Source: a virus
Strand: one strand, 5' to 3'
Virus record (IMG/VR): IMGVR_UViG_3300009506_000088
Span: 1 to 41,049 of that record
DNA: 41,049 bases
Under the pieces are notes generated by a model. That model ran no database searches, was not told where the DNA came from, and saw only the letters and a program-made list of their open reading frames with translations. Made by a program: the position numbers and the translations under genes. This document shows, piece after piece, positions 1,397-37,636 of the stretch. How positions within the stretch are numbered: position 1 is the stretch's first letter; each line of letters starts with the position of its first letter.

Positions 1397-1717
1397 TTAT
1401 TCCTGCTTTCTATATTCAATGATGCAGTTTTCGTCACTAACTGGGTCTTCTCCTAAACACCTCAATGGAAGCATGGAACCAGCAGTACATTCCCACTCCT
1501 CACCATTCTTCCTGAGCTTCACACAGTTTCCCTCATCATCGTGACCGAATGGGGCAGCCTTCCACATATCCATACAGCAAGCTCCGCACTTGTTGCACCT
1601 CACGGATTTAATATAAACGGGTTGGTCTTTGCCTGGCTCCTTATAAGCAACCAACTCAGTGTTAGCATAAACCTTAACATAAGCGTCTTCAGCCCAATCT
1701 GGTATATCTATTTTCAC
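1397..1717 (-). CDS. CxxCxxCC (YkgJ/UPF0153-like) metal-binding protein
   Basis: A 106-residue protein whose centre reads CNKCGACCMDM, then GNCVKL, EWECTAG and LRCLGED. The CxxCxxCC start followed by spaced single cysteines resembles the zinc/iron-chelating YkgJ-type family, whose biochemical role is poorly known. The GTG start at 1717 overlaps the stop of the sulfotransferase (TAGTG), and GAGGAG precedes it, so translation is probably coupled. The N-terminal 35 residues are outside the motif. It could instead be a generic phage zinc-ribbon protein. It is one of four small cysteine-rich proteins in this operon. Confidence 0.6.
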   Translation of the reverse strand: MKIDIPDWAEDAYVKVYANTELVAYKEPGKDQPVYIKSVRCNKCGACCMDMWKAAPFGHDDEGNCVKLRKNGEEWECTAGSMLPLRCLGEDPVSDENCIIEYRKQE

Positions 1718-2271
1718 TAGGGTAGCTCCTCTCGTCCTAGCAATACTTTCAATCTCTCGTTGTAGGGTTTGTAGTAATCAAGAAGTAAACTCCTAACTTC
1801 ATCATCCATCACTTCTGGGTACTCAGAGATGGATGAATGTTTGGGGAAATCAGGAAAGGTAACTTTGGGCTCCAATCCCAACCAGTTCTGCACATCAATG
1901 AAATACTGATTCGGAGTGGAATAGAACTCTTTCGTGAAATATATCCTGAATTGCTGTCGATGAGACACCGAGAACCACCTCTCTAAATGATCTACATATC
2001 TCCCTCTCGACAGATAGGAGAAAAAGAACTGGCTACAAAAACATGCTTCACTTCTCTGTATAGCCACGAAGGGTAATTTTTCAATTTTATTTATCAATAC
2101 CTCATGCCAATAAAGAGACCATGCTCCGCTGACAGGCTCCCTCAGAAGGACTATAAACCTAGCATCGGGACATGCCCTCTTAATTCTTTCCTCCACTCCT
2201 TCTATATCGAAGTATTCAGGGCTTGCATAGAACCCCATTTTTCCATGTATGAATAAATTAGGCTTTCCCAC
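1717..2271 (-). CDS. Sulfotransferase-like protein, N-terminally short
   Basis: A 184-residue protein matching the C-terminal two thirds of PAPS-dependent sulfotransferases of the heparan N-sulfotransferase type: SPEYF, then ERIKRACPDARFIVLLREPVSGAWSLYWHE (the 3'-phosphate site with conserved Arg and Ser), then LSRGRYVDHLERWF, FTKEFY, NWLGL and a C-terminal YYKPYNERLKVLLG. These proteins usually begin with a P-loop-like PAPS-binding segment (K-x-G-T-[TS]) about 70-90 residues earlier, and that part is absent here. The preceding gene is an unrelated complete protein overlapping by the TAGTG junction. GTG 2271 has AGGAG six bases upstream. It may be inactive, may work with a partner, or may be a remnant. 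If active it would sulfate a glycan. Confidence 0.75.
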   Translation of the reverse strand: MGKPNLFIHGKMGFYASPEYFDIEGVEERIKRACPDARFIVLLREPVSGAWSLYWHEVLINKIEKLPFVAIQRSEACFCSQFFFSYLSRGRYVDHLERWFSVSHRQQFRIYFTKEFYSTPNQYFIDVQNWLGLEPKVTFPDFPKHSSISEYPEVMDDEVRSLLLDYYKPYNERLKVLLGREELP

Positions 2272-4629: not shown

Positions 4630-5091
4630 TTACGGTGTGCTTACATTTCTCAAGTTTGTTGGGGCTGCCATTGCTGCAAAGAACCTTATACCAAAATCCA
4701 CGCCATCCTTGCAGTCTGCTGGATTGTCCGACCAAGCAAAATTACTTTCAGGAACCACAGGCTGGCTTGTAGCATCTTCTGCTAAAAACGAAGTTACCCC
4801 TACAAAATACGTGCCCTTAGTATTGAGGGTGATCGTATATTGCGTTTGATTAGTTGTCCCAACTTTAGCAGGATTTGCCTTACCTGGGTCAGTTGCAGAG
4901 TTAGCCAAATATACGTTGTACTCCATGTGGAATCCAGTTGGGATAGGATCACCATCTACATCCTGTGTTACTGCATCCCACGATACTGTTGACTGATTAG
5001 CCGTTACCCAAGTCAGGGCCATAGCCGGAGTTACAACATAGCAGAGAATGAATGGAATCATCAACAACATTGCCGCTAACTTTTTCTTCAT
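4630..5091 (-). CDS. Exported fibronectin type III-like protein
   Basis: A 153-residue protein with a clear Sec signal peptide: MKKK, then a hydrophobic core of about 18 residues, and an AMA signal-peptidase I site (cleavage predicted before LTW). The mature part is one beta-sandwich resembling fibronectin type III, with TVSWDAV, a GFHMEYNVYL strand and TYFVGVTSF, followed by a short tail. The strong AAGGAGGTG lies before ATG 5091. It directly follows the glycosidase gene. Fn3-type modules often act as linkers or weak glycan-binding parts of extracellular carbohydrases; here it is a separate exported protein, which is unusual for a tail-region gene. Confidence 0.7.
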   Translation of the reverse strand: MKKKLAAMLLMIPFILCYVVTPAMALTWVTANQSTVSWDAVTQDVDGDPIPTGFHMEYNVYLANSATDPGKANPAKVGTTNQTQYTITLNTKGTYFVGVTSFLAEDATSQPVVPESNFAWSDNPADCKDGVDFGIRFFAAMAAPTNLRNVSTP

Positions 5092-5102
5092 AATACACCT
5101 CC

Positions 5103-8100
5103 TTATGGTGAAGTTATTCCAAAAGCTCCATCTCCCGATGCACCACTGCTTAGCCCTAAGTTACCTGTAGCTGCAGGTTCAAATCCTACTACACCACCCG
5201 AACCCGTCCCTCCTTCTTCCTCCGTACTAAATGAACGAATTACTGGAGTTCCGCCAACGGGCGAACCATTAACGTCAATACCTAGCTTCGTCACTATGTA
5301 TACTGTTTGCCCGTTAGGTAATGTATCGGCTGGGATAGTTTTGCTGTACAGATTAGAGGCATCCCAAGGGTCGCCAGCAGGCCAATGCTTTGTTACACAG
5401 CCAGTATCAGCGCAAGCTGCCCAGTATGTATATTCATGTTCCCTATTGGTGTAGATTTGATTTTGGTCTATTTCAAGTGTTATGGTTTGGGTGACATCAA
5501 CGTCAATCGCACCATTGCTAGGCGTAGACCCACTGTAGGTTGCGGCCAAGGGGATAAATTCATCAAGCTCCAAGGAATTGGATGAGCCAAAAAAACCACT
5601 GTGGTTTTCGTGGGTAGAGGTATTGCACATCCAGCCACCGTCCGCTCCCGCCCAGAACATGGCAAGACTAATTTCTGGAAAATCGCTTGAGATTATATCC
5701 AGCCACTCTGTTTTCAGGTTTAGCTTACCTTTACCGTTTGCTAAGCAACCATCATTTGGATGGTCTGGGTCATAGTAAGCGTCAGCACCATGACCAGTTT
5801 CTGCAAGCCATAATATTTTATGATGTGCCTGGGAGTATTCTTTTAGATCATCATAAAGGGTTTTGGTTCTACTGATGTCCGTTCCAAGCGTGGTTCCCCT
5901 ACTGTTCATTATGTCAACATTTGCTCCTGGGTCTGACAGATTGCTGTAATTGATGTAGAGATTTCCGTACTCGCTATCGGACGCTGACCCACCTTGAAAA
6001 TAATAAGTATTGTTAGTGTCCTTACATTCATCTATGCTAGCCGTCTCCGTTAATGTAGTGGCACTTACCCTGACGGAATACGGCCTCCCATTATAGTAAT
6101 CTGCGTTCGTTGCTAAGTTGGCGTAATAAAGACCCGTTGCGTGTTGTGACCAAATATCTGCAATATCAATCCAACTTGCTGAATCATAATTTTTGATGGT
6201 GCATGGATTGAATGTGAAATTCGCAAAAGCTCCCACATACTGCGTCCACCCTATGACATCCACTACATCGTCGCCTGGGTACCAAACCCTCCAATCACTC
6301 CTGTCTGACGAAGACTGAATACCTGTTTGTGAAACTGCCTGGTACGCAAAAATCTCATTCGTTAGTCCCTGTACTGGAACTGTGCTAACTGTGCATCCAC
6401 TATAGTTGGAACCTAATGGGTCGCCGCTTATGGTCCCACTAACTTGTGCCCATGTTCCACTCGTCAACTCAAAGTAAACAACGTCATCAAAATCTGATTC
6501 ATTGGCGTACAATGCAATGCCTGTCGCACCACCACCGAAGGTGATAGTTTCATGTGCATTAGTCGGTATCCCATCAACAAGAGTTCCTTGAGCATAGTAG
6601 TTGTCAACATCGCAAGCACCATCTACAGTCGTCACCTTTCCAAAATTCCTGTGGACTTCAACGTATCTGCGAAATGCCGCCTTGAACTTTGCTGGTGTTG
6701 CGGTATCAGTTCTGTCTTTAGAGTAGTGGAACCATTCACCATTTGTTTCACCCATTAACTTTGTCAATACCGTAGCATCTGCTTGTTCCTTCCAGTATGC
6801 TACATCAATGGCATTGGTCGTTACCATATTGAGAAATCTATCAGTTGAGGCATACGTTCCTGGTGACAGAACCACTTCGGCCCAATCACCACAGCCAGTA
6901 TGAGTACGGTAATTGCAGCCAATTATTTTATAGCTATCACCAGTTCTAACATCATCGTTGTAAAAATCTGAACCAACCACCGTAGTCAGAAAGGTAGCCT
7001 CATTGCCCTGTATCTCATATTCAATTCCCTCTGCGTCACATCCATCACAATCAGTAATAACCACGTAATAGCCGTCATAGACGTTATGTTCCCAATTCTG
7101 TGTACTATCTGTAAGATTTTGGGCCGTTGGATTAGACGTTAATGTACCGTCAGATTTTCCTCCTGATTCACACCCAAATAATACACTGCTTGTACTGCTA
7201 TCATATAAATTCCATGCACAGTCGCTATCCCACGGATCAGAAAATTCGTGTGGTGACATGGCAATGAAGGCACCGTTATTCCATACTATTAAGCCTGTAG
7301 AAAAAGCATCATCCCACGGTGGAGTCCGTCTCACTCCACCACCAACAAATGCTGGCATTTCCCCGAAAGCACTATCGCAACTATTTGCACTGCCTTCCAC
7401 ATAATCATAATATGATCCAGTTGCACTGTCCCAATCGGCATCGCCATCGCCTAGCCACTGCCCAGGTATAACCTTGCCCGTACCCCTCAATGCCCATATA
7501 TAATTCAGCATGGCTAGAGCATTTGCGTCATATTTATCGGTTGACCACACCAACTGATCGTCAGCATCCGTACCGTCACTTGTTATTCTGGTGAGCCACA
7601 CCGCAACATTTGTATAGCTCGGTCTACCCTGCGCCGTGTCAAGCGTAAAAGAGCCATCTGATGTTTGCGTAATGGTTCCTGTGCTTCCATTTACATGACC
7701 ATCTATCCTGTACCATTCGTAGTAATATTTCCCCGCTGGCAAGTAAACATTAAAAGGTGAATTAGCCTCTTGAAGAATTATATAGTCATGCCCAGGATTA
7801 GCCGTACACCACCCCGTAGTAGAGCAATCGCCACTTCCCATGCTTTGACCATCATCGGGATACATACCTCCCAAGTCGAACACTTGCCTTGTCCACGACA
7901 CGATCTTACCTGAACTGTACCTTACATCATCATAGGCTGTTGTTTCTAAAGTCCAGTCGTCAAAAGGTGTGTCATAATTAGTATAGTGGTAACCCCTAGT
8001 AAATAATTTCCACGGCAGCACCGCATCATCGCCATTTTGGCTTATGCTATTGTGGTCTATATCCACCATGATTGGCATTTTTACACTGCTATTTATAATA

Positions 8101-9077
8101 GGAATGTCGCCTGATTCCGGTGGGTTATTCGCTTTCAAGGTGAAACCGAATGTATCCAAAGTATATTCGTCACCACCAAAGACGCTAAATCCTTCTGTTC
8201 CTTTAATTGTACTCCAAGTATAGGAACCTGGACTCGAACCACAACCACCTGAGCCTTCCGTCACCATACCTGGGGTAATCATAAAAAGTCTGCTATCGTA
8301 GTTTGTGGCAGCCTTGACATAGCCAATAAGGTCTTCATACGTTCCTAATGATGGGTAACCCTGCTCATTGTATGGTTCAAAATACCAATTATCCAAATCA
8401 TGCAAGTTATTCATTAATGCTTGCGCCCAAGCCTGTTGATAACTTTGCAATGTTGAGGACGGACTTTCAAAAAACTCCATTGCACAACCATCGTCGTCGG
8501 TATCTGCATCCAAGCTGTTTTCGTTATTATCTTCACTAAACGGATTGCCAAACCAGTTATTATCACCTGGCGTAGTTTTGAAGCAAAAATTTTCGTAGAT
8601 CATCACACTTACATAGACACCTATGTCCTGCAAATCCTCAATCCTATCGTGTAGCCTAGTGAAGAAACCAGAATTAAACCCCTGTGTCAAATCGTATGTA
8701 GCTTTACCATCATTCGCAGTCCCTGGTCCTGTTCTGACATATATTTCTGGGTAACTACTATCATCACTGGTGTTATTACTGGTAGATGAAACGTCAATCC
8801 ACAGGCGAATGAAGTTGTAGCCACGGGCTTGCAGAAACGTAAGATACTTGTCCCAATCAAGTGCTGAATCACCATCGTATGTGTTTCTCCCCGTACCAAG
8901 ACTATGAGGATAATCACGGACTATACCGAATATCTGCGTACCGCTGAGATACAAGGGGTTGCCGTTTTCATCAGCAAAGTATATGGGGTTCGATTTGTAC
9001 ACACTAATAGGTGCGGTAAAGGAAACCGCCGGAATCAACAATGCCACGATTGACAATAGTAGTATTACTCTTCTCAT
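5103..9077 (-). CDS. Large exported glycoside hydrolase with two TIM-barrel regions
   Basis: A 1324-residue protein. Residues 1-22 form a signal peptide (MRR, hydrophobic core, SFTA). Residues about 30-540 look like a clan GH-A barrel of the DUF4038/GH140-like sort: YLSGTQIFG, FIRLWIDVSS, a putative acid/base in FEPYNEQG (E238), and IDHNSIS...WKLFTRG. Residues about 570-1175 look like a second, GH26-like barrel: GETNGEWF (putative acid/base E777), FRRYVEVHRNFG, WYPGDDVVDVIGW and the putative nucleophile E1093 in LAETGHG, followed by MFWAGADGGW. A beta-sandwich tail follows, then a Gly-rich end. It contains about 20 cysteines. It probably cleaves a surface polysaccharide; the substrate is unknown. 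ATG 9077 follows an AAAGGTG site. Family assignments are by motif only. Confidence 0.7.
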   Translation of the reverse strand: MRRVILLLSIVALLIPAVSFTAPISVYKSNPIYFADENGNPLYLSGTQIFGIVRDYPHSLGTGRNTYDGDSALDWDKYLTFLQARGYNFIRLWIDVSSTSNNTSDDSSYPEIYVRTGPGTANDGKATYDLTQGFNSGFFTRLHDRIEDLQDIGVYVSVMIYENFCFKTTPGDNNWFGNPFSEDNNENSLDADTDDDGCAMEFFESPSSTLQSYQQAWAQALMNNLHDLDNWYFEPYNEQGYPSLGTYEDLIGYVKAATNYDSRLFMITPGMVTEGSGGCGSSPGSYTWSTIKGTEGFSVFGGDEYTLDTFGFTLKANNPPESGDIPIINSSVKMPIMVDIDHNSISQNGDDAVLPWKLFTRGYHYTNYDTPFDDWTLETTAYDDVRYSSGKIVSWTRQVFDLGGMYPDDGQSMGSGDCSTTGWCTANPGHDYIILQEANSPFNVYLPAGKYYYEWYRIDGHVNGSTGTITQTSDGSFTLDTAQGRPSYTNVAVWLTRITSDGTDADDQLVWSTDKYDANALAMLNYIWALRGTGKVIPGQWLGDGDADWDSATGSYYDYVEGSANSCDSAFGEMPAFVGGGVRRTPPWDDAFSTGLIVWNNGAFIAMSPHEFSDPWDSDCAWNLYDSSTSSVLFGCESGGKSDGTLTSNPTAQNLTDSTQNWEHNVYDGYYVVITDCDGCDAEGIEYEIQGNEATFLTTVVGSDFYNDDVRTGDSYKIIGCNYRTHTGCGDWAEVVLSPGTYASTDRFLNMVTTNAIDVAYWKEQADATVLTKLMGETNGEWFHYSKDRTDTATPAKFKAAFRRYVEVHRNFGKVTTVDGACDVDNYYAQGTLVDGIPTNAHETITFGGGATGIALYANESDFDDVVYFELTSGTWAQVSGTISGDPLGSNYSGCTVSTVPVQGLTNEIFAYQAVSQTGIQSSSDRSDWRVWYPGDDVVDVIGWTQYVGAFANFTFNPCTIKNYDSASWIDIADIWSQHATGLYYANLATNADYYNGRPYSVRVSATTLTETASIDECKDTNNTYYFQGGSASDSEYGNLYINYSNLSDPGANVDIMNSRGTTLGTDISRTKTLYDDLKEYSQAHHKILWLAETGHGADAYYDPDHPNDGCLANGKGKLNLKTEWLDIISSDFPEISLAMFWAGADGGWMCNTSTHENHSGFFGSSNSLELDEFIPLAATYSGSTPSNGAIDVDVTQTITLEIDQNQIYTNREHEYTYWAACADTGCVTKHWPAGDPWDASNLYSKTIPADTLPNGQTVYIVTKLGIDVNGSPVGGTPVIRSFSTEEEGGTGSGGVVGFEPAATGNLGLSSGASGDGAFGITSP

Positions 9078-9086
9078 GCTACACCT

Positions 9087-10517
9087 TTATGGTTTGAATG
9101 CTGCGGTTACGCTCACCCAATTATCTGACGAAGACATACTAAATGCTTTTGCAGCCGTTGCACCTGCACTAGCCTGTTCAAAAACACCAAATGCCGCCAA
9201 GACTCCAGCACTCGTGTCCTGCTGTTCTTCTAGTATTTGTGTATCAACGCTAGGCCACGAACTTACCGATTGCACACCCGCTGTATCCTGTGATATGGCA
9301 ACAAACACAAGGGAATTGTCTTGGTTGGTAGTCACTGAAGGAGCCGTGGCAGTAGAGCTTTCAGCCTCATCCTTGCCACTCACATCCAACGGAGAACCCG
9401 CTGCCCCCGTAACCCTTGCTATTGCACAAACGTAGTCGGCAGCAGCAGAAAATGTCCAAGAATAATTTGACGGCTCACTCCCGCCGGCCACCTGGTACCA
9501 AACTGATAATGATGCGGAACTTCCATGTATGTCTTGCTGAATTACGGTAAATTCTGAACTGTCAGAACTATGTGTTCGTCCATCATCGCTGGCTACCATC
9601 GCAACCAGTAAGTCACCGCTAGACGTTCCACTCGGTTTCGTAACTGTACAGCCAGTAGAATCGCCCTTTGCGTATTGGTAACTCTCGTAAACTGGAGTGC
9701 CTGAAGGTGGAGCTTCGCCAGGAGGTTCTATAAGAGCTGTACTGACTGTGACTTCATCTACATAGTAATAACAGCTAGTAGTGGAATTTGAGGTATCCTC
9801 AAAGTAGATTGCCCTAACCGCATAGTCAGCGCCATCTTCATACAGGATATAGTTTGAGGAGTTGGTCTGTAACTGTGTTGGAGTGTCGGTCCACACTCGC
9901 AATTCACAGCCATTGGCTGTGTTGCGTCGCCCACGTAAAGCTATATAATAGACATTTCCTGCTGTGAGGGTGAAATACTCGGAAGGAGAGGACGTCATAT
10001 CAAAGGACAACTTTTGAACGCCTGATTCATCCCGCAGGTGAATATCACATACTGAATTGCTGGTGTCGCTGTCGTTGATGTGTCCTATATAGCCAGAATA
10101 TGCATCAGTTGGCACATCTGGGGCTTTATACCACCAGTGAAAGTATCGGTCTGTCTGGTCAGAGTTAAGAACACCCCCAATGTTACAGGCTGGATCACCA
10201 TCGGTATTGCAGTTGTTATTGTTATTAACTTCTATTTCAACCGAATGAGAAAGATGTTTTGACCATGCCGTAGAGTAGGTGTTTATGTGGTTCCCACTTG
10301 CACCGCTATCGTCAATTACCCAATCATTCGAGCAGAAATCATCCGCTCCATATTCAAACGACTCTATGATGTCACCACCACCCCAATCAAGAGAGCCAGT
10401 ACAACTGTAACCCGATTCTCCACCTCCGATGAATACAAGATTAATGCCACCAGGAAAGGCCAAACTAGGCACGGTCAATAAAAGCAGAAGAATTACGAGT
10501 GATAAATACCTTTTCAT
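9087..10517 (-). CDS. Exported jelly-roll/beta-sandwich protein
   Basis: A 476-residue protein with a textbook signal peptide (MKRY, a Leu/Val-rich core, SLA cleavage site before FPGG). Residues about 48-260 resemble a concanavalin-like jelly roll (FEYGADD, RYFHWWYKAP, YYIALRGRR, CYYYVDEVTVS). A linker EPPGEAPPSG leads to a second domain, about 285-476, of a kind seen in extracellular and phage adhesins: VTKPSGTSSGDLLVAMVAS, WYQVAGGSEPSNYSW, and IARVTGAAGSPLD. Nine cysteines are present, fitting an oxidising destination. The start overlaps the previous stop (TAATG), so translation is probably coupled. It likely binds glycans; it may partner with the glycosidase encoded next. Confidence 0.65.
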   Translation of the reverse strand: MKRYLSLVILLLLLTVPSLAFPGGINLVFIGGGESGYSCTGSLDWGGGDIIESFEYGADDFCSNDWVIDDSGASGNHINTYSTAWSKHLSHSVEIEVNNNNNCNTDGDPACNIGGVLNSDQTDRYFHWWYKAPDVPTDAYSGYIGHINDSDTSNSVCDIHLRDESGVQKLSFDMTSSPSEYFTLTAGNVYYIALRGRRNTANGCELRVWTDTPTQLQTNSSNYILYEDGADYAVRAIYFEDTSNSTTSCYYYVDEVTVSTALIEPPGEAPPSGTPVYESYQYAKGDSTGCTVTKPSGTSSGDLLVAMVASDDGRTHSSDSSEFTVIQQDIHGSSASLSVWYQVAGGSEPSNYSWTFSAAADYVCAIARVTGAAGSPLDVSGKDEAESSTATAPSVTTNQDNSLVFVAISQDTAGVQSVSSWPSVDTQILEEQQDTSAGVLAAFGVFEQASAGATAAKAFSMSSSDNWVSVTAAFKP

Positions 10518-11542
10518 TAGTTACCTTCCACTATGTAAGCTGAGCACCATATTTGAAGATAATCGATGTCTTCGCTGTCTACTGTTGCGTAAATAATACT
10601 GCCAGCCGAAATAGTTCCGCTATCAATAGTTCCGTTATCTTCGCATTCGTACACATTGGTGCAGGTTATTGCTTCTATTGTAGTTGGCGACCCATCACTA
10701 GGGGAACTGTAATCCTTCAACGTCACTGTATAAGTCACTGTGTTGTCGTCAAGTTTCAATCCGCAATCAGTTATTATTATGCCATGAGGGTAGTAATCGT
10801 CCTCTATCGGCCACAGCGGAAAGGTAGATACTGCCTGACCATCAGGGTCAACAATCGTAGCGACTAATGGCTTATCCCTGCAGGCATATAGCCTTGACCC
10901 CACAGAATCACGGACCTCAATACAGGCATCATTGTTATCGTGAGCAATGCGGCCCTCGGCGGCTGTAGTAGGCTCGTTAGCATTCGGCAGAGTGATGTAT
11001 GATACGTTCATGGTGTTTGACCAGGAGGGCGTGCCAGAGCTAACCATCAACACTTCGCCGTTATTACCAATGGCAAACCTGGTCAAGGTGCTTGAACTAT
11101 ATCTAAGCAGATCACCTTCTGCCCATCCTGAAATTGCCGCTAATTCGTCCAGTTCTGAGTCTTGAGGTTGTGCTCCTATACTCGCCACCGCTTCTGGTCC
11201 TGTTGTTGCTCCAGTTCCACCTGCTGGTATTGGTAGATTCTGCAATATCCATCTACCATTTCCAGCTCCATCAGGATCTACTATACTAGGTAAATTTTCA
11301 TCTTCACCACTATCCTCATCATATTTATAAAACAGAGGACCACCATAGGTAGAATCGGAAGGAACAACGGCGGTTTCTCCATCAATCATTCCTGTCAAAT
11401 CATCTAAATCATACCCTGTGGTACAACCACCATCAATACATTTTCTGCCATAATGTTTTTGCTGTGCCCACCCTTTACCCGGTAAAACCGTTAAAAGGAA
11501 TGTGAAGAATACCAGGATCGTCATAATAGGGTATCTTCTCAC
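10517..11542 (-). CDS. Exported tail-fibre-like protein
   Basis: A protein of about 341 residues. GTG 11542 is chosen because the perfect AAGGAGGTGA lies eight bases upstream; longer readings run through that site. The N-terminus MRRYPIMTILVFFTFLLTVL followed by GKGWAQQ looks like a signal peptide. The mature part has PIPAGGTGATTGPEAVASIGAQ, a segment typical of side tail fibre repeats, then beta-rich sequence (about 170-340) with six cysteines. It is therefore fibre-like but carries an export signal. It may be a fibre or adhesin that matures outside the cytoplasm, or a moron that borrowed a fibre segment. Confidence 0.6.
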   Translation of the reverse strand: MRRYPIMTILVFFTFLLTVLPGKGWAQQKHYGRKCIDGGCTTGYDLDDLTGMIDGETAVVPSDSTYGGPLFYKYDEDSGEDENLPSIVDPDGAGNGRWILQNLPIPAGGTGATTGPEAVASIGAQPQDSELDELAAISGWAEGDLLRYSSSTLTRFAIGNNGEVLMVSSGTPSWSNTMNVSYITLPNANEPTTAAEGRIAHDNNDACIEVRDSVGSRLYACRDKPLVATIVDPDGQAVSTFPLWPIEDDYYPHGIIITDCGLKLDDNTVTYTVTLKDYSSPSDGSPTTIEAITCTNVYECEDNGTIDSGTISAGSIIYATVDSEDIDYLQIWCSAYIVEGN

Positions 11543-11558
11543 CACCAGAATCACCTCC

Positions 11559-12071
11559 TTAAAGGAACAGAACACTTTCAGTTAAAACCATATTGCCCCC
11601 AGAAGCCGAGAAGTCAAACACAATCGCTTCACATTTTTCCAAATCAAATTCTCTGTAGAAATCCGTGATAGCTTCTCCACTAATAGGAACAACAGGTGTA
11701 CCAAAAGTCCAAGCCTCTCCCGATGTATTAGCCTTGCAGGCTCTCACATCTACAGTAAGTTCGGCAGCGACAGGACCAGTTCCTTTCACAAGCAGAGCAA
11801 AGCTTCTGGCAGCTTCAAAATCAAATAATTCCAAATTGAATGGTCCTGCTCTCTTCGTCTGTCCATCATTTATCGTAAGATCACTCTCGATGAGGACATC
11901 AAGTTTGGACTCTGTGGGTTCTATAGGGGCGGCAGTAGGAATATGGGAAACAAGAGTTAGATCAGGGTCATACACATAATGGGAAACTTCCTCTGTAGCT
12001 CCATACAGAATGCTCTTTCCCCTAGCAACTAAGGTGGCTTGATCGGATCTATCATTACGGTATCTGGGCAT
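11559..12071 (-). CDS. Hypothetical structural protein
   Basis: A 170-residue protein starting MPRYRND. ATG 12071 is chosen over an in-frame ATG 18 bases upstream because GGAAGGAGGTG fits it. The C-terminal half looks like a single beta-sandwich (NLELFDFEAARSFALLVKGTGPVAAELTVDVRAC, then a YREFDLEKCEAIVFDFSASGG segment), resembling small phage decoration or baseplate accessory proteins. There is no signal peptide, in contrast to the next gene. No named family is recognised. Confidence 0.5.
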   Translation of the reverse strand: MPRYRNDRSDQATLVARGKSILYGATEEVSHYVYDPDLTLVSHIPTAAPIEPTESKLDVLIESDLTINDGQTKRAGPFNLELFDFEAARSFALLVKGTGPVAAELTVDVRACKANTSGEAWTFGTPVVPISGEAITDFYREFDLEKCEAIVFDFSASGGNMVLTESVLFL

Positions 12072-12124
12072 TTCAGCACCTCCTTCCATTTATAAAAGTA
12101 TCACAAACAGTTAAACCTCGCAAT

Positions 12125-12637
12125 TTATTTTCTAATCTCCTTCTTGGCTAGATAGAGAAGGACATACAGCATTGCTTTCAATGTGGTTTTCTGATCAGTA
12201 GTAAGGCTTCCAAATACGTTTTCAACATGAACAGGAATCTGGTCATAATTCAGGTTTTCAACTAGCTCAGTCAATCTCTGTTTCAGTTGTCTATTATCTG
12301 ACATGCTAGACGCTCGGTTTGCTTGCTCAATCGTATATTCTGCATCAGACAATAGAATTATCGTCTTCGTAACCCCGACAGATTGTAGACGCAATTTGTG
12401 ACGTTCATAGTATCGCATGGAAACAGGTTGGGAACCCGCAACAGGTACAGCATGAAGCTCAAAATTACCGTCCTTGTATCTAACGTAAATCTCACTGAGG
12501 TTCATTAGGTCAACCACTTTGCCAATTCTGTGATCAAACCTCAGTCTTTCCCATCCCACTCCTCTAGGAACAGGACCTACATTTACACCCCCTTTCCATG
12601 GTCTTACTAGAATATCCTCATTGAGTAGAACTCTCAC
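12125..12637 (-). CDS. Hypothetical phage protein
   Basis: A 170-residue protein of unknown family. The N-terminal half is beta-type (MRVLLNEDILVRPWKGGVNVG, VPRGVGWERLRFD, EIYVRYKDGNFELHAVPV). The C-terminal 90 residues are helical and end in a short hydrophobic LYVLLYLAKKEIRK. GTG 12637 follows AGAGGAC and overlaps the preceding gene by 20 bases, indicating coupled translation. Such bipartite small proteins are common after tail fibres. No enzymatic motif is seen. Confidence 0.45.
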   Translation of the reverse strand: MRVLLNEDILVRPWKGGVNVGPVPRGVGWERLRFDHRIGKVVDLMNLSEIYVRYKDGNFELHAVPVAGSQPVSMRYYERHKLRLQSVGVTKTIILLSDAEYTIEQANRASSMSDNRQLKQRLTELVENLNYDQIPVHVENVFGSLTTDQKTTLKAMLYVLLYLAKKEIRK

Positions 12638-13112
12638 GCCTGTCCTCTATTTGCCCTACATCAATCGATAGAGCCGTTTCAAGTTTATCCACAACCCCAC
12701 TTTCCTCCAGTGCCGACGCAAATCTGTTCATAACTAGCAGGGTATCTTGCAAGCCTTTAAATACCTTTCTCACCTGCTCTAGTTTTCTTATCACTCCCTT
12801 ATTGAGAGCCGAACTCTGCGACAATCTGCTCCTCTGCTCCCCCAGAACTTTCCTCATCCCCCTGTAGACCCCTTCGTGATACTTCAAGTGTTGAGTCCAA
12901 AAGGAGGGGAGAAATACGTCTTCTTTCCTTAATTCTTTCGATGCTAGGGGCATCCCTGTTTTGTCATCTAGCACCTTTTCCCAAGTCATCTCTACTGTCA
13001 AAGCCTTGACAACTGCCTTCTCAACCATATCCCGCACAGTGACTTCCAACTCCACTCTGACAGCCGATTTGATTGCCTCGTACAACCACTCTTTATCTTT
13101 CTTGGATAGCAT
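12618..13112 (-). CDS. Hypothetical helical phage protein
   Basis: A 164-residue protein that is mostly charged helix, including a REQ/KLE-rich segment from about residue 90 to the end that could form a coiled coil. ATG 13112 is preferred because AAGGGGGG lies upstream with good spacing; the open frame itself extends upstream into the fibre gene. No domain is recognised. The position just behind the small fibre suggests an accessory or assembly protein. Confidence 0.45.
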   Translation of the reverse strand: MLSKKDKEWLYEAIKSAVRVELEVTVRDMVEKAVVKALTVEMTWEKVLDDKTGMPLASKELRKEDVFLPSFWTQHLKYHEGVYRGMRKVLGEQRSRLSQSSALNKGVIRKLEQVRKVFKGLQDTLLVMNRFASALEESGVVDKLETALSIDVGQIEDRRESSTQ

Positions 13113-13123
13113 AAAATCCCCCC

Positions 13124-13777
13124 TTATGGTATCTTGATTGGGTAAATCATTATGCCTACCGCAGCTTGAGGTCTCCAAGTTCCTAACGACGACCCTGTTG
13201 AATGGGTTATAGTAGGATCTGGTCCATCAGTTGTATAACCAGCAGTATAAAGAGAACTACCAACAGTCCCCGACCTGGTAATCAAATTTTGGCCTACAAT
13301 CGTATCCTTTGCTACTCCATAGCCTCCATAAGTGCCGGCTGTACTTGGAGATCCTACATTCTCCAAAGTATGTGAGTGAGATGAATGATTCGGAATAGTA
13401 ATATCATCTAAATTCCACTGCCCCCTCTTACCCCAGACAGAATAATCCTGGTAACCTCCCCTTAAAGCCAACACTCTATCACCATTAGCCGTATCCTCCG
13501 TAAAACCCTCTTCCTGAGCACTTGCATACACCCACATCCTCGTGATGTTAGCTTCCGTCTGATCTCTGAAAGCAATAATACCTCTCCATTGACCACTCGC
13601 TCCTCTATGTCTTAGCAAAGATCCAGTTGTATCATACCACAGTTGTCCCGGCTCTGCGCTGGGTGCCAAAGGGCCTGAAAACGATGATCTTACAGAATAC
13701 AAAGCATTCTCAATAGCCAACATATCCTGCTCTGAGTCATTGGTCATCTCAAAAAGATTAGTGGCAAAATTCTGCAC
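13124..13777 (-). CDS. Small tail fibre/collar-like protein
   Basis: A 217-residue protein. The N-terminal part has LAPSAEPGQLWYDTTGSLLRHRG, a pattern of phage structural proteins that display short beta segments. The middle has PNHSSHSHTLENVG, a His-rich turn typical of tail collar/fibre tips that coordinate metal. It ends with TWRPQAAVGIMIYPIK, matching the C-terminal 'WRP.AAVGI' ending of many fibre proteins. The GTG start at 13777 has GGAGGTGAT upstream. It lies directly behind the gpJ-like gene, the usual place of accessory fibres. Receptor or virion-tip role inferred. Confidence 0.65.
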   Translation of the reverse strand: MQNFATNLFEMTNDSEQDMLAIENALYSVRSSFSGPLAPSAEPGQLWYDTTGSLLRHRGASGQWRGIIAFRDQTEANITRMWVYASAQEEGFTEDTANGDRVLALRGGYQDYSVWGKRGQWNLDDITIPNHSSHSHTLENVGSPSTAGTYGGYGVAKDTIVGQNLITRSGTVGSSLYTAGYTTDGPDPTITHSTGSSLGTWRPQAAVGIMIYPIKIP

Positions 13778-13793
13778 CTTCCATCACCTCCCT

Positions 13794-16700
13794 CTATGTA
13801 TAAAAGTTTATAGTCATAGCACTGACTAGACCTCTTATGGCCTCATTCGGGTCGAATATCTCGACTTGCATCTTGTAATATCTACCCTCAGTAATTGCAG
13901 CCAATATTTCCATCATTCTCGCTTCGTTAGCCATCTCTCCCGAATAACTGTCATCCCACATAAGTTTCATTCTAACGGTGGGAGCTGCGGTTAATTCAAG
14001 CAACTCATACCATTTCTTGCCTGTAATAACTTGGTACCATTTTTCTGAACCCGGAGGAAATAAATCTTCCCAAGTAGTTCCGCCTCCTATAGAGGAAAAT
14101 GAAACATCAGCCCAAACCATCCTTGTGGCAATCGAACCAGCATCTACAATGTGACTTGTATAGATGGCATAGAGATTGTCTGCCCTAAATGATCTGTCTT
14201 GATAACCATATAAAATCCAATCAGATCCTCCCTCATCTCCATAAAACTCAAAATATGCGTCACTTACAAAGTCAAAATACCCATCATCGACAAATTCAAA
14301 ATATGGATCTCCAGAACCCCCTCCACCTCCTCCCTCTATCTTAGCAGCCATACCGCCGCCATATTCACCACTAATATCAATCTCCCAAGCCAGAGTATTT
14401 TCCCCATCAACACTAAAATCACTTCCCTTGATACTTAGCCAATATTCATCTCCCTCTTCTACATCGAGACCACCAGCAGGCAACCTAAACGTAGTCCATT
14501 CAAATGTTGTGCCGATTCCTGTAACATCTATACCTTCCCCAGATAATATTACAGATCCAGGATTTTCCCCGCTCATATCATAAATGTAAACACGAGCCTC
14601 CCCCGATGGGTCTCCTATTCTCATCAATTTGAATTGAAACTGGTCTATGGTGAAGTCTCTCTCTACGTTCCATTTCTGTGCATACTCATATGGGAATCCC
14701 CCTTTGTGAAATCTCTCCCCACTAACTAAACTAGAAATCCTTTCACCACTATGTGTTCCCTGTAAGTAATCTTCGTATGAATACACCGTATGAGAAGCTC
14801 CAAAGAACTTTCCTCTAGGTATAACCTTAATATTATCAAAATAAATCGTACCTAGATCACTCGTATTCTTACCAAATATCAGAGAAAACTCATCCTCCAG
14901 ATCACTTAACGGTATTGCAAATTCGCCGGAAAACGTCTTTAATTCAGACTGACTTGTGCCAGTTACATACCCATCCGCATACCCTCCATCCGTGACATTC
15001 CATATTCCGAAGAATATTTCCTTGTCACCTGCTGTTCCAGATTTACAATCCAACTGCACATCTAGAATAAGTTCTTCAAATAAATCTCCCATACTCTGCG
15101 AGGCAGATTGAGAGGACCCGCTAGTAGCATCCATCTCCAACATCTCACCTGATATGCTCAGAGTACAATTCGTAGGAGTCCACCCATCAGTGTTAACACT
15201 AAAATGACCATTCCTTACCATGTTATAATAAATATCAGCCGAACCTTCAGACGACCACCCTTTAGGAGTAGGTACTTTAGCTGTAGCCGATCTAGGGATT
15301 TCTCCATATACTTCATTATTGCTGAGAGTGTTGGCGTAGAATATGTGGGTGCCAGGCCTTACACCCTTTAGGCTGAGATTGGGAGACCTTAAGGCTCCTA
15401 AAAATACTCCACCCGTCCAAGCTCCTAATCGAAACTCATACAATTCAATGTCAGGGTCAGTTAGTTTTGTGGAATATAAATTGATTGCCTGCTCGGCGAC
15501 AACTGCGGCTAGCCAGGGCAAACTGGATGGGGCAGTCACCTTTCCCGTCACTCGGTGCTGTAATGGGGATATACTACCGAGGGCCAACTTAACACCCCAT
15601 ATGGAGACGGGTTGGAGTTTTATTAAATACAATTGGCCCTCTTCCACAGGGTCAATCGTAAAATTGGTATTCACATCATAGAGATACTTATAATCACTGT
15701 CTCCACTTCTCTTCACATACACTCTACAGTAATCATACCAAGGATAGTTGATAGGCTGGTCAAAGGATATATGCAGACGGGTAAAAGTTCTTAATCTGTA
15801 ATAATATGTTTCTTCGGTTATGCTTGGTCGATAAACTTCACCAGGTGATTCTCTCGGATCAACTAGGGCGGAAGAATAAACTTGATCCTCATTCAAATCA
15901 TAATCATCATTATATAATACAGCATTCTCGTAGATGAAATCTATATCTACAAGACCATCAGTCCTGATCGTACTCCCTCTAACCCTGAACAACTCACCAC
16001 TTATACCAAGTCCCCCTCTTCCAGTATAGCCATGCGTTATAGTAACAAGATCGTGAGGATCAACTTGGAGTAATTCATCAGTAAATGTACCTCTAACTCC
16101 CCTATTTAATCTTGACCTCTCTAAAAAATAAACCCCAACATCTAATGCCTGCTGCTTACTCCCCATTCCTATAGCACTAAATTCTTGAATATTACCTACT
16201 ACATCACCAACCTGAATATCATCTGTACTCCAATCCTTATCAGGATCAATGAACTTGACTTTGAACCCATCAGGTTTGTCCATACGAGAAGGCTCATACA
16301 TCTCAATCATGGCCTTCCCCGTAGTCTCTTCTACTGCTACATGTTCATCTTTAATATGAAAGACGGGGACTTCATAATCTAAATCGGCATAGCGGAGATA
16401 AATCTTGTTGCTAAAGTGAACAAACTGACCTCTGAAAGACCTTAGAATAACGTCAACAATGGTCTGAGAGGGAAGATCACTACCTATAGCATAGTTTAAA
16501 TACCAACCTTGTAAATCACAATAGTTTGCAGCCTCAGTCCACGAATCAATATCAATCTTAGAAACACTAACAGCCTTCCCATACCTAGTATTTGTCATAT
16601 AGTCATAGAGACAGAGCACTGGATTATGGGAACCTACAGTCCAATTCAAAGGATCAGGATCAGAGAGATCAACATCTACCCAATTATAAGAAGCAGTCCT

Positions 16701-17279
16701 GAAATCATAAACCTTTCTTCCCTTTAGTAAATAGGTTCTGCTGGGAGTTCTTACAAAATAATCTTCATCATACTTCAGCCTCCACACTACATTGCACGTA
16801 TATTTATAATGGTCGGTATGGCTGGGAAATGCTGCTGCTAAGTCTAGATCCTCAGTTTGATTTGATGCTCCGCTATGAAATGTAAAACTTTTAAGGTTTG
16901 AGGGGTATTCATTATGAAGAATCTCATCTAGCCATACTTGAGTTATACCAGTTATAGGATCTACATGTAAACCTTCACATTCCCCTTCTCCTAAAGAATC
17001 AACAATATATAAATATTTATTTTCATTTCCACCTGAATTTATAAATATCTCATTAGAGCCAACCTTGTGCATTCCATAAATAAGCTTGATTGCAGCCTGA
17101 GTAGTTCGAGTATTTATCTGAAGTTTTCGACCTACGTCCTGATCGGGTTCATGGATTGTTAAAGAGGCTTCAGCCCAAGCAGCCAACACAAGGGAAGCAG
17201 CCAACCAATACTGTTGAAAAGCAGCGGCTACGAAGGCCGCTACCATCAACCCTATTATCCTCGCTCTTTGGCTGCCCAT
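13794..17279 (-). CDS. Tail tip/central fibre protein (lambda gpJ / TipJ-like)
   Basis: A 1161-residue protein. The first 40 residues are hydrophobic (GLMVAAFVAAAF, WLAASLVLAAWAE), as in TipJ-type proteins. Residues about 55-480 resemble the gpJ hub region (KLIYGMHKVGSNEIFI, VLCLYDYMTNTRYG, IVDVILRSFRGQFVHFSNKIYLR). Fibronectin-like segments follow (about 500-680), then carbohydrate-binding-like beta domains (about 690-840 and 850-980). A GGGGGGSGD linker leads into three 8-residue YFxF repeats at 14309-14238, then a final beta domain. It overlaps the NlpC/P60 gene by 25 bases. It should form the tail tip that contacts the cell. The order DUF2460, DUF2163, NlpC/P60, gpJ is standard. Confidence 0.85.
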   Translation of the reverse strand: MGSQRARIIGLMVAAFVAAAFQQYWLAASLVLAAWAEASLTIHEPDQDVGRKLQINTRTTQAAIKLIYGMHKVGSNEIFINSGGNENKYLYIVDSLGEGECEGLHVDPITGITQVWLDEILHNEYPSNLKSFTFHSGASNQTEDLDLAAAFPSHTDHYKYTCNVVWRLKYDEDYFVRTPSRTYLLKGRKVYDFRTASYNWVDVDLSDPDPLNWTVGSHNPVLCLYDYMTNTRYGKAVSVSKIDIDSWTEAANYCDLQGWYLNYAIGSDLPSQTIVDVILRSFRGQFVHFSNKIYLRYADLDYEVPVFHIKDEHVAVEETTGKAMIEMYEPSRMDKPDGFKVKFIDPDKDWSTDDIQVGDVVGNIQEFSAIGMGSKQQALDVGVYFLERSRLNRGVRGTFTDELLQVDPHDLVTITHGYTGRGGLGISGELFRVRGSTIRTDGLVDIDFIYENAVLYNDDYDLNEDQVYSSALVDPRESPGEVYRPSITEETYYYRLRTFTRLHISFDQPINYPWYDYCRVYVKRSGDSDYKYLYDVNTNFTIDPVEEGQLYLIKLQPVSIWGVKLALGSISPLQHRVTGKVTAPSSLPWLAAVVAEQAINLYSTKLTDPDIELYEFRLGAWTGGVFLGALRSPNLSLKGVRPGTHIFYANTLSNNEVYGEIPRSATAKVPTPKGWSSEGSADIYYNMVRNGHFSVNTDGWTPTNCTLSISGEMLEMDATSGSSQSASQSMGDLFEELILDVQLDCKSGTAGDKEIFFGIWNVTDGGYADGYVTGTSQSELKTFSGEFAIPLSDLEDEFSLIFGKNTSDLGTIYFDNIKVIPRGKFFGASHTVYSYEDYLQGTHSGERISSLVSGERFHKGGFPYEYAQKWNVERDFTIDQFQFKLMRIGDPSGEARVYIYDMSGENPGSVILSGEGIDVTGIGTTFEWTTFRLPAGGLDVEEGDEYWLSIKGSDFSVDGENTLAWEIDISGEYGGGMAAKIEGGGGGGSGDPYFEFVDDGYFDFVSDAYFEFYGDEGGSDWILYGYQDRSFRADNLYAIYTSHIVDAGSIATRMVWADVSFSSIGGGTTWEDLFPPGSEKWYQVITGKKWYELLELTAAPTVRMKLMWDDSYSGEMANEARMMEILAAITEGRYYKMQVEIFDPNEAIRGLVSAMTINFYT
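14238..14309 (-). repeat. Three tandem 24-base repeats in the tail tip gene
   Basis: Three consecutive 8-codon units encode DPYFEFVD, DGYFDFVS and DAYFEFYG. The Tyr-Phe-acidic-Phe core and the leading Asp are kept in all three, while third-base positions differ, so the repeat is old rather than a recent slippage product. It follows a poly-Gly linker. Confidence 0.8.
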
Positions 17280-17698
17280 CTTATAACCGCCTCTATTGGG
17301 TAGTTTCTTTTGTTGACCAATCCCACCGAATCTCCTACAAAACTCGACAGAATCAACCCGTTTCCTACATATATACCTGCTCCTAATACACCTTTACCAT
17401 CTTTAAATAGAACCAAATCTGGGGGAAACAAGCAATAATTGTCTACCTTTTCTCCTAAACTAAGTACATAAGAAATAAAAGCGAATTTAGCCTGTTCGGG
17501 GAACTCAGACCACAATTTAGAATAATTTTCTTCAGTTATCCCTCTATATTCCTTAGGGATTTTAATTCCTAACTCTCTTCCTATAGAGTTAACCATCATT
17601 AAACAATCCATACCTGACAAATCTCTCCCACCCAACTTGTAGGGGACACCAATATATTTACTAATTACACTAGAAAGATTAAGCTTTTGTTTAGCCAA
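17255..17698 (-). CDS. NlpC/P60-like tail-tip peptidase, catalytic His apparently absent
   Basis: A 147-residue protein with the NlpC/P60 fold signature: YIGVPYKLGGRDLSGMDCLMMV, with the expected catalytic cysteine at C32, and a later GAGIYVGNGLILSS that aligns with the usual HVGIYxGNG strand. In the family the first residue of that strand is the catalytic His; here it is Gly (about G106). Members in tail operons (lambda gpK, GTA peptidase) are thought to open peptidoglycan during DNA entry. TTG 17698 is the start: AAGGA lies nine bases upstream and the gene overlaps the DUF2163 stop. It may be inactive and purely structural. Confidence 0.75.
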   Translation of the reverse strand: MAKQKLNLSSVISKYIGVPYKLGGRDLSGMDCLMMVNSIGRELGIKIPKEYRGITEENYSKLWSEFPEQAKFAFISYVLSLGEKVDNYCLFPPDLVLFKDGKGVLGAGIYVGNGLILSSFVGDSVGLVNKRNYPIEAVIRWAAKERG

Positions 17699-18350
17699 CT
17701 TTAGGATTCCTTCCCCACCAGATTATCTTGTCCTCAATGTCAGGCAACCAACGATACCCTCCAAAATTATCCGTATTGTTATATTTGCTACAGGCGGCAT
17801 AGGTGCGGTCGCATTCCTGAGTAGGATAATCCTTAGAATAACCACATTCATCTCCACCAAATACTTTCCATCTACAGCTAGGAGAATGAAGATTAATCGT
17901 ATTCATATCCCAACGGGTAAACTCATTGGTCATAGTTATGCGAATCTTCTCGTCAGGGTATAAATTCCAAGCGTCTATCTCTCCCGAAAACATTGTAATC
18001 GCAGCATCTCCCACAATCTGAAAATCACTATCCAGCAGCACCATTTTGAGCCCAATGGGTTGCCCCTGCTGCCCCGTTTCAGCAAAGTAATACGTCAACG
18101 ATTGATCCAACACATCTATATCCACCGTTGCCTCATCGATAATTCTAGCCGTACTGTAGTTCACGGAGTCTACGGAGAAAGGGTAAGGCTCATACTTCGC
18201 CCCTTCAAAATATATAGAAACATCACAATCAGTTAAATTAAAATGATATGCCTCCCCTTGATCATTCACCACAGAGAGATTCATAAGTATAAAGGGCCGA
18301 ATGCTCCCTTTCCTAATTTCGTCCAATAAATCTTGATCTATTTCTCTCAT
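17691..18350 (-). CDS. DUF2163/BR0599-like tail hub protein (lambda gpL-type)
   Basis: A 219-residue protein resembling DUF2163 and lambda gpL-type baseplate hub proteins: an N-terminal FILMNLSVV strand, ARIIDEATVDIDVLD, FSGEIDAWNL, and a C-terminal cysteine module with C159, C169, C180 and C187 (SPSCRWKVFGGDECGY, QECDRTYAAC). In lambda gpL and the gene transfer agent hub such a module binds an iron-sulfur cluster; metal binding here is inferred from the four cysteines. ATG 18350 overlaps the previous stop as ATGA. It connects the distal tail protein to the gpJ-like tip. Confidence 0.8.
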   Translation of the reverse strand: MREIDQDLLDEIRKGSIRPFILMNLSVVNDQGEAYHFNLTDCDVSIYFEGAKYEPYPFSVDSVNYSTARIIDEATVDIDVLDQSLTYYFAETGQQGQPIGLKMVLLDSDFQIVGDAAITMFSGEIDAWNLYPDEKIRITMTNEFTRWDMNTINLHSPSCRWKVFGGDECGYSKDYPTQECDRTYAACSKYNNTDNFGGYRWLPDIEDKIIWWGRNPKVG

Positions 18351-18979
18351 AACTCATCATTTAAGAGCCCTTTCAGCTCCACCCCCGATCTTCCCACTAT
18401 ATTGTAAAAGTCCTCATAACTAAAGGCATCCTGCATAAATCTACATCTAATCTTCAAAACACCTGTAAAATCGACCGTTACACGATTGCCTTCTTCTGGT
18501 GCCACAGTGAAATGTAAAATGTCTTCTCCATCGGAGCCAGCTTGAGGATCAATCCAATATTCTCCTGAAGTTGCTAAAGGGTCTCCTCCTTTATACACCG
18601 TTTCATTGGATATACTTTTACCAGGTAGACTGAACTGAGTAGTGCTTCCATCCCCCACACCTACATATTCACTCTCATAATCTTGTATCCCATAGTTGGA
18701 TCTCTCGATGAAAGGGGCATCTAGGTAGAAACTGAACACTTCATACCTACCCATCCTTGCAACAAAGAATTTCCAAATAGTCCTTATATTCGCCGCAGTG
18801 AAGAACTTATTATTATAAGGTATTCGGATGTTGCGGCGGGGCACGGTCCATTTCTGTCTTCTCTTTTCCCGCCCCGGTACATTTTCGTCATCAAATTGGG
18901 ACACCAAGGTCTTCGTCTGAAATTCAATGACAATAGGAAAATCATAGTTTATGTCTGAAAAATCAGGAAATTTAGCCAC
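18347..18979 (-). CDS. Distal tail protein, DUF2460 family
   Basis: A 210-residue protein. The N-terminal half has NIRIPYNNKFF and IWKFFVARMGRYEVFSFYLDAPF, typical of DUF2460 (the GTA and lambda-like distal tail protein). The central YVGVGDGSTTQFSLPG and closing VTVDFTGVLKIRCRFMQDAFSYE are also family features. It should form the ring that joins the tail tube to the hub. GTG 18979 follows GAGGGTAAG and overlaps the tape measure stop by a few bases. Its stop overlaps the next start (ATGA). Confidence 0.85.
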   Translation of the reverse strand: MAKFPDFSDINYDFPIVIEFQTKTLVSQFDDENVPGREKRRQKWTVPRRNIRIPYNNKFFTAANIRTIWKFFVARMGRYEVFSFYLDAPFIERSNYGIQDYESEYVGVGDGSTTQFSLPGKSISNETVYKGGDPLATSGEYWIDPQAGSDGEDILHFTVAPEEGNRVTVDFTGVLKIRCRFMQDAFSYEDFYNIVGRSGVELKGLLNDEL

Positions 18980-26146: not shown

Positions 26147-26532
26147 TCAATTTCCTCCAACCAGCCGTTCAGCACAGTCTCACCAACGTAACTGGCTATA
26201 TTTACAGGATACAATCTTTTGTCGTGCAGCACAACATTATTTCTGAAGATCCGAGGACATTTATCAATTCCTTCACTTGATCGTCTGTACAGACTCAAAT
26301 AATCGAACTGATCGCAATAAAAGAACGTCGGGAGTGCGTCGGATAGCGACTCTGTTAAGCGTTCGTCGTCATAGATATACAAAACATAGTCTGTCGATAC
26401 TCCGAACTCTGAGAACGTCGGATCGAAGTCTGCTATAATCGTAGCCACAGGTAATTTGCCAAGTGACTCGATGCACTTCTCTCTCATCCTTTTATCTTCT
26501 TTCCCCGACCTCAGAACGATTGCCGTTAACAC
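26143..26532 (-). CDS. Small glycosyltransferase-2-like protein
   Basis: A 129-residue protein that resembles a shortened GT2-type glycosyltransferase: LTAIVLRSGKEDKRMREKCIESL at the N-terminus, VLYIYDDERLTESL (a DDE acidic cluster as in 'DADE' nucleotide-sugar motifs) and YRRSSEGIDKCPRIFRNNVVLHDKRLYPV near the end, a usual late GT2 segment. Most GT2 proteins are at least twice as long. GTG 26532 overlaps the radical SAM stop (TAGTG). It could be a minimal transferase, a helper subunit, or degenerate. Confidence in the fold is low. Confidence 0.4.
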   Translation of the reverse strand: MLTAIVLRSGKEDKRMREKCIESLGKLPVATIIADFDPTFSEFGVSTDYVLYIYDDERLTESLSDALPTFFYCDQFDYLSLYRRSSEGIDKCPRIFRNNVVLHDKRLYPVNIASYVGETVLNGWLEEIE

Positions 26533-31159: not shown

Positions 31160-31171
31160 GATTGTACTCCT

Positions 31172-36873: not shown

Positions 36874-36895
36874 ATCTATTCACCTCCTTCCATTA

Positions 36896-37609: not shown

Positions 37610-37636
37610 ATTCTATTCACCTCCTTCTCTGTTATA

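What the first reader, a model, noticed from the sequence alone, without database searches (positions are those of the whole stretch)
4630..11542. Four consecutive tail-region genes with Sec signal peptides
Genes at 11542, 10517, 9077 and 5091 each begin with a basic start, hydrophobic core and a signal-peptidase-like site (GWA, SLA, FTA, AMA). They encode a fibre-like protein, a jelly-roll protein, a double glycosidase and an Fn3-like protein. Phage virion proteins are normally assembled in the cytoplasm and have no signal peptides. Export suggests a system in which infected or lysogenic cells secrete a glycan-binding and degrading set, for example to clear the capsule for released phage, to help the lysogen feed, or to mount onto tails outside the cytoplasm.
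Basis: partly seen in the sequence, partly recalled or inferred. Interest (0 to 1): 0.75.

Follow-up and report, generated by a model that had tools for sequence, protein, structure and literature searches.

The report
Phage tail adhesins with export signals
Four neighbouring genes in the tail region of an uncultured phage start with convincing signals for export out of the cytoplasm, at least one of them on an ordinary tail-fibre part, which suggests that this phage has the infected cell export proteins that tailed phages normally keep inside.

Summary
All four genes (4630-11542, minus strand) start with a Sec/SPI-type signal peptide and sit tightly packed in the late operon between tail-tip and lysis genes. 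Such signals are rare in this setting: 5 of 367 ORFs downstream and 2 of 462 upstream of the tail-tip gene in 81 other contigs with a related tip protein. One of the five is telling. In L023 (tip protein 44% identical) a gene at nearly the same place has a signal peptide in front of the same fibre domain. That domain also occurs without a signal, at the very N-terminus, in L101, so the signal was added to, or lost from, a tail-fibre module. The mature proteins carry 2.6 to 3.2 times more cysteine than signal-less adhesin or tail proteins of this phage. Best reading: late export to the periplasm, oxidative folding, release at lysis, action on glycans. Free or docked on tails is undecided; lysogen feeding has no support. 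The trait is not general: close relatives L022 and L102 have fibres without signals. 'Fn3', 'jelly-roll' and the first glycosidase domain have no profile support; the second matches GH26. Export itself was not tested.

The parts
10517..11542 (-). Fibre protein (341 aa): signal peptide cut at GWA|QQK, then a fibre N-terminal domain (mature residues 1-77), then a tail-fibre-like part
   Evidence: PHROG tail fiber match at residues 102-283, E 3e-6; domain shared with L101 (35% over 75 residues, E 2e-9) and L023 (32% over 69, E 3e-5)
9087..10517 (-). 476 aa protein: signal peptide cut at SLA|FPG; C-terminal domain of a kind found in phage tail regions. Start overlaps the fibre's stop by one base
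   Evidence: phrog_3329 (unknown function) at 263-375, E 1e-6; minor tail protein of Rhodococcus phage Shagrat, E 7e-5; Ruegeria phages, E 0.2 to 0.5
5103..9077 (-). 1324 aa protein: signal peptide, best site AVS|FTA; second half GH26-like; 20 cysteines in the mature part
   Evidence: first half unassigned
4630..5091 (-). 153 aa protein: signal peptide cut at AMA|LTW; mature part without a family match
12125..13777 (-). Three genes between J and the signal-peptide genes (13124-13777 collar-like, 12618-13178 coiled-coil-like, 12125-12637), conserved in order in L023
   Evidence: 29%, 28% and 32% identity to the L023 genes
11559..12089 (-). 176 aa gene between these and the fibre; it has no counterpart in L023, where the fibre follows directly
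   Evidence: no PHROG or Pfam match
13794..17279 (-). Tail-tip protein J (central tail fibre), anchor for the comparison; hydrophobic hairpin at its N-terminus
   Evidence: PHROG central tail fiber J, E 2.5e-42

Best explanation
The four genes encode a late-made set of phage adhesin and glycan-cutting proteins, at least one built on a tail-fibre module, which the host's Sec machinery exports into the periplasm. Signal peptidase removes the signal. In the fibre, cleavage leaves the fibre domain beginning where signal-less versions begin. The proteins fold under oxidising conditions, are released when the phage lyses the cell, and then bind and cut surface or matrix glycans, which would help progeny leave debris and reach new cells. 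Shown: signal-like N-termini, operon place, domain kinship, a second phage with the same pairing, cysteine enrichment. Inferred: actual export, disulfides, release at lysis, glycan role. Undecided: free action (favoured for the glycosidase) or docking on tails (open for the fibre, which keeps its N-terminal domain).
For: Signals. Rarity: 5 of 367 and 2 of 462 ORFs. Second phage: L023 has J, three homologous genes in order, then signal peptide plus fibre domain, with the ATG overlapping the stop before it; its N-terminus reaches its observed score in 24 of 3000 shuffles. Signal-less form: L101 has the domain at the very N-terminus of two ORFs, one of them a 797 aa tail-spike-like protein; the window's mature domain aligns from residue 2 to L101 residue 3; domain scores exceed all of 1000 shuffles in the five pairs tested. 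Cysteine: 38 in 2204 mature residues against 31 in 5792 for 17 signal-less tail/adhesin proteins (p 1.9e-6) and 15 in 2271 for the 9 adhesin-like ones after J (p 0.0013). GH26 match.
Against: No relative of three of the four proteins was found outside G001 and, for the fibre domain, L023 and L101; only the fibre has a second signal-bearing case. L023 is cut off inside the fibre. The domain-only scan with L023 first did not bring back the near-identical record G001, so window and L023 domains are only weakly alike in such a search. Close relatives L022 and L102 have fibres after J without signals, and L111 and L116 have none after the conserved genes. J has a hydrophobic N-terminus that the rule also calls. 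Other, cytoplasmic-type enzymes of this phage are cysteine-rich too. The 153 aa protein has one mature cysteine.
Confidence: 0.5

Rival explanations
1. Export is a folding detour. The four, or the fibre at least, are virion parts that pass through the periplasm to form disulfides and oligomers, and mount onto finished tails only after lysis.
For: The fibre keeps the N-terminal domain that opens a tail-spike-like protein in L101; tail-type C-terminal domain in the 476 aa protein; cysteine enrichment; place in the tail operon.
Against: That this domain is the tail-binding one is inferred from its N-terminal position. No virion data. It does not explain why a glycosidase of 1324 aa would dock.
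Confidence: 0.2
2. The N-termini are not used for export: they are hydrophobic ends of virion proteins, as in J, buried in the tail or acting on the membrane at infection.
For: J, a core tail protein, has a hydrophobic N-terminus called by the same rule; hydrophobic J N-termini also in HTVC111P, CRP-406 and Lebethron.
Against: The four have a charged start, one hydrophobic core and a cleavage-type site and no second segment, arranged better than in nearly all shuffles; J has two segments. Cysteine enrichment is unexpected for cytoplasmic folding.
Confidence: 0.15
3. Ordinary cargo: exported genes taken from bacteria, unrelated to the virion, carried as accessory genes.
For: Glycosidase and 153 aa protein have no match in phage records; exported genes of unknown function are described in Porphyromonas gingivalis phages (PMC10367356, passages).
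Against: Fibre and 476 aa protein have tail-type parts; no bacterial relative of the glycosidase by one scan of genome contigs or in 395 genomes; no promoter or terminator signals beyond shuffles; third-position GC like the tail genes.
Confidence: 0.15

Closest known systems
Phage-encoded Sec-exported endolysins (Lys44 of Oenococcus phage fOg44; SAR endolysins)
   Same: Tailed-phage late proteins that use the host Sec system, described in PMC6116005 (passages)
   Different: They cut cell wall for lysis; the four show no peptidoglycan-hydrolase match and are adhesin- and glycosidase-like
Signal-peptide genes of Porphyromonas gingivalis phages (proposed Nixviridae)
   Same: Phage genes adapted to the host's secretion route (PMC10367356, passages)
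   Different: There the five exported genes are of unknown function; here the signal stands before a tail-fibre domain
Tail-spike depolymerases made in excess that spread ahead of the phage (halo)
   Same: Glycan-active tail-type proteins thought to act free of particles (PMC9917116, passages)
   Different: The passages do not speak of Sec signals; release there is by excess production
T4 Spackle
   Same: Phage protein working in the periplasm (PMC7677548, start of abstract in a listing)
   Different: An early superinfection-exclusion inhibitor, not a late fibre or glycosidase
Signal-peptide run in marine contig L063 and relatives of one of its genes in Pelagibacter and Roseobacter phages
   Same: Several consecutive signal-peptide genes downstream of tail genes
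   Different: Unrelated small proteins, seemingly near lysis genes; no fibre domain or glycosidase

Membership tests
Sec/SPI signal-peptide proteins | Charged start, hydrophobic core, small residues at -3 and -1, no further membrane segment | tested here: met
   4 of 4 by rule; no SignalP-class program
Sec/SPI signal-peptide proteins | Actual translocation and cleavage | not testable with these tools
   needs an experiment
Tail-fibre proteins (window 10517-11542) | Sequence kinship to tail-fibre proteins | tested here: met
   PHROG tail fiber E 3e-6; domain shared with a tail-spike-like protein
Tail-fibre proteins (window 10517-11542) | Presence in the virion | not testable with these tools
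   no proteomics
GH26 glycosidases (second half of 5103-9077) | Pfam score above the curated cut-off | tested here: met
   23.2 and 25.5 bits against 20.2, over about 95 of 311 profile positions only
GH26 glycosidases (second half of 5103-9077) | Two catalytic glutamates and whole barrel | not tested
   the match covers part of the profile; no usable structure model was made of this half (the one run was of the first half)
Fn3 domain (4630-5091) | Profile match to Fn3 | tested here: not met
   no Pfam, PHROG or NCBIfam match
Jelly-roll / LamG-like lectin (9087-10517) | Profile or fold match | tested here: inconclusive
   no Pfam match; model useless, mean pLDDT 31.5
Exported endolysins | Peptidoglycan-hydrolase domain | tested here: not met
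   no such match for the four

The most novel reading that the evidence does not exclude
A tailed phage that sends part of its tail-adhesin set through Sec into the periplasm, so that these proteins mature outside the cytoplasm and mount onto tails only after lysis: extracytoplasmic maturation of virion parts in a tailed phage.
Probability: 0.2. Interest if true: 0.85.

Novelty: new variant of a known kind. Interest (0 to 1): 0.5.

Why it matters
Tailed phages are understood to build their tails in the cytoplasm (established knowledge). A Sec signal directly in front of a tail-fibre domain, in two divergent phages, makes it testable whether some fibres mature in the periplasm or serve as exported companions of the virion. 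It would point to a way for a phage to free its progeny from debris and clear host glycans, and suggests checking tail-region genes for signal peptides routinely.

Tried and rejected
Single-protein scans of viral contigs with each of the four found only the near-identical longer record G001. tblastn against phage records: no match for fibre, glycosidase, 153 aa protein, L023 fibre and L101 domain; fibre against plasmids: none. Glycosidase in genome contigs: no relative; in 395 genomes of one phylum: none. Fibre-domain profile in 395 genomes: none, which shows little because no positive genome is known.

Structure models of residues 21-560 of the glycosidase and of the mature 476 aa protein were useless (mean pLDDT 34.2 and 31.5), so no fold search was made.

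The first survey required a ribosome site and a higher score (2 of 306 downstream, 1 of 426 upstream; 79 contigs). After reading L063 I saw that it missed signal-peptide genes there; I relaxed the rule and added two loci (5 of 367 and 2 of 462; 81 contigs). Four of the five downstream hits are in L063 and do not support the fibre case. The relaxed rule still misses some export signals, for example another L063 gene (7036-7902) and a lipoprotein-like ORF at L102 9900-10127, so the rates are lower bounds. The window was not in either count.

In five annotated phages with a J relative I entered most but not all listed genes; downstream of J only a 73 aa gene beside the lysozyme gene of CRP-406 was called.

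Lysogen feeding: rejected for want of support. Separate transcription: scans gave no more than shuffles. Literature searches; I saw listings, and passages of four papers, so I do not claim that nothing like this is in print.

Full report
Setting. The window is a virus record of 41,049 bases. A longer, near-identical record, G001 (54,932 bases; window base 1 lies at G001 15,550), gave the sequence to its left (L013). The minus strand carries a late operon: head genes (35.6-39.2 kb), a block with glycosyltransferases (28-34 kb), tape measure (18972-22964), tail-tip protein J (13794-17279), three small genes (12125-13777), one gene (11559-12089), the four genes in question, further adhesin-like genes, and in L013 a holin-like gene (Pfam match below cut-off) and a lipoprotein that I take for a spanin. 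L013's plus strand holds replication and recombination genes such as RecA, a 5'-3' exonuclease and an SbcCD-like pair.

The observation. All four N-termini fit the Sec/SPI plan by a rule-based predictor that recognised 13 of 13 known signal peptides. Shuffling residues 2-36 reaches the observed scores in 11, 2, 42 and 46 of 3000 trials. The glycosidase is better cut at AVS|FTA than at FTA|PIS. Of 67 genes in window and L013, 8 are called: the four, the lipoprotein, L013 9127-9447, J and 31172-31507. The last two I take for false calls: J has a second hydrophobic stretch directly after the first, and 31172-31507 is called only by an apparent lipobox.

How unusual. A profile of J (A1) brought the best 80 of 584 viral loci, one of them in G001. 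In the other 79 plus two loci from genome contigs, signal peptides occur in 5 of 367 ORFs downstream and 2 of 462 upstream of J; a stricter first pass gave 2 of 306 and 1 of 426 in 79 loci. The five lie in two contigs: L023 (one) and L063 (four, unrelated proteins; one has relatives in 11 phage records, 6 of them Pelagibacter phages). Many contigs are short, so these are rates per ORF seen, and lower bounds because the rule misses some signals.

The key comparison. L023 is from another phage; its J is 44% identical in the best segment. After J come a collar-like gene (29% to 13124-13777), a coiled-coil-like gene (28% to 12618-13178) and a 194 aa gene (32% to 12125-12637). Then an ORF opens with MKKLLTFIFLLFLVAVWATPVLA and goes on with the fibre domain of the window's fibre (28% over 100 residues with the signal, E 1e-5; 32% over 69 residues without it, E 3e-5). 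Its ATG overlaps the stop before it. The window has one more gene (11559-12089) between. L023 ends inside the fibre, in what looks to me like sequencing-adaptor sequence (recalled, not searched).

Signal-less counterpart. A scan with the domain alone found L101 besides L023. L101 holds the domain at the very N-terminus of a 797 aa tail-spike-like protein and of a second, cut ORF, both without a signal. The second aligns with the window's mature domain from residue 3 to mature residue 2 (35% over 75 residues, E 2e-9) and with L023's (42% over 69, E 1e-10). All five domain pairs tested beat 1000 of 1000 shuffles. Against this stands that the domain scan, with L023 as first row, did not return the near-identical record G001: the window's domain is a divergent member. 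So a signal peptide stands in front of a tail-fibre module in two divergent phages, placed so that cleavage leaves the usual N-terminus. Gain on this domain or loss in L101 cannot be told apart with three cases.

Not general. L022 (J 45%) and L102 (J 40%, in a MAG named Proteobacteria) have fibres after J without called signals. L111 and L116, from genomes found with J profile A3, show no signal-peptide gene after the two conserved genes.

Physiological hints. The mature four hold 38 cysteines in 2204 residues. Seventeen signal-less tail and adhesin proteins hold 31 in 5792 (p 1.9e-6); the nine adhesin-like ones after J hold 15 in 2271 (p 0.0013). I chose these sets by position and likely role; enzymes of the phage that should stay in the cytoplasm are also cysteine-rich, residues in one protein are not independent, and the 153 aa protein has a single mature cysteine. 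The enrichment suits periplasmic folding but does not prove it. Third-position GC of the four (0.38-0.40) is like J and tape measure (0.34, 0.38) and unlike two head genes (0.60).

What the proteins are. Fibre: PHROG tail-fiber match after the N-terminal domain. The 476 aa protein: its C-terminal part matches phrog_3329, a minor tail protein of Rhodococcus phage Shagrat (E 7e-5) and, weakly, Ruegeria phages (E 0.2 to 0.5), in one of which the gene lies between tail and chitinase-type genes. The 1324 aa protein: GH26 above cut-off over part of its second half; first half unassigned. The 153 aa protein: nothing. The two structure models failed.

Mechanism. I put 0.5 on the exported, glycan-active set and 0.2 on export followed by docking on tails. 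The genes lie in the late operon with a one-base overlap or gaps of 4 to 16 bases, so they should be made with the tails, shortly before lysis. A lipoprotein in the lysis region and a J relative in a MAG named Proteobacteria suggest a diderm host, where Sec would deliver them to the periplasm and lysis would release them. Free action fits the glycosidase; the fibre's N-terminal domain leaves docking open.

Known kinds. Sec export is known for endolysins (PMC6116005, passages) and inferred for genes of P. gingivalis phages (PMC10367356, passages); tail-type depolymerases made in excess are said to spread ahead of the phage (PMC9917116, passages). I saw no case of a Sec signal on a tail-fibre module in the listings of eight searches, which is weak evidence of absence. 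I rate it a new variant of a known kind.

Noticed in passing
window 28301-33564: Several glycosyltransferase-like genes lie between head and tail genes, with a weak radical-SAM match next to them at 26532-27767; perhaps sugar decoration of virion or host surface.
   Followed up: no
window 1717-2271: A sulfotransferase-like gene (just below Pfam's cut-off) sits among the adhesin-like genes, next to a small cysteine-rich gene (1397-1717, 8 Cys in 106 aa).
   Followed up: no
L063 6512-9182: A marine contig with four called (five by eye) consecutive signal-peptide genes downstream of fibre genes; one family recurs in Pelagibacter and Roseobacter phages.
   Followed up: partly
window 13794-17279; L005 3616-6645; J genes of L015, L017, L018: The tail-tip protein J often opens with one or two hydrophobic segments, which can fool signal-peptide rules and may be a membrane-active part.
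   Followed up: partly
L023 7839-7897: The contig end looks like sequencing-adaptor sequence (recalled), so the fibre ORF is cut there.
   Followed up: no
L013 11621-13825 (minus): 734 aa protein without cysteine, made of repeated stretches resembling LHINVSDKATVKEYV (read by eye).
   Followed up: no
window 35650-39193 versus 4630-22964: Head genes have third-position GC of 0.60, tail and signal-peptide genes 0.34-0.40: a composition break between modules.
   Followed up: no
L102, L111, L116: J, a collar-like gene and a gene of about 195 aa stay in this order in bacterial genomes; in L116 the gene run on that strand seems to end soon after them.
   Followed up: partly
L013 9127-9447: Plus-strand gene beside the lysis region with a signal-peptide-like start and a C-terminal hydrophobic segment, no Pfam match above cut-off.
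   Followed up: no
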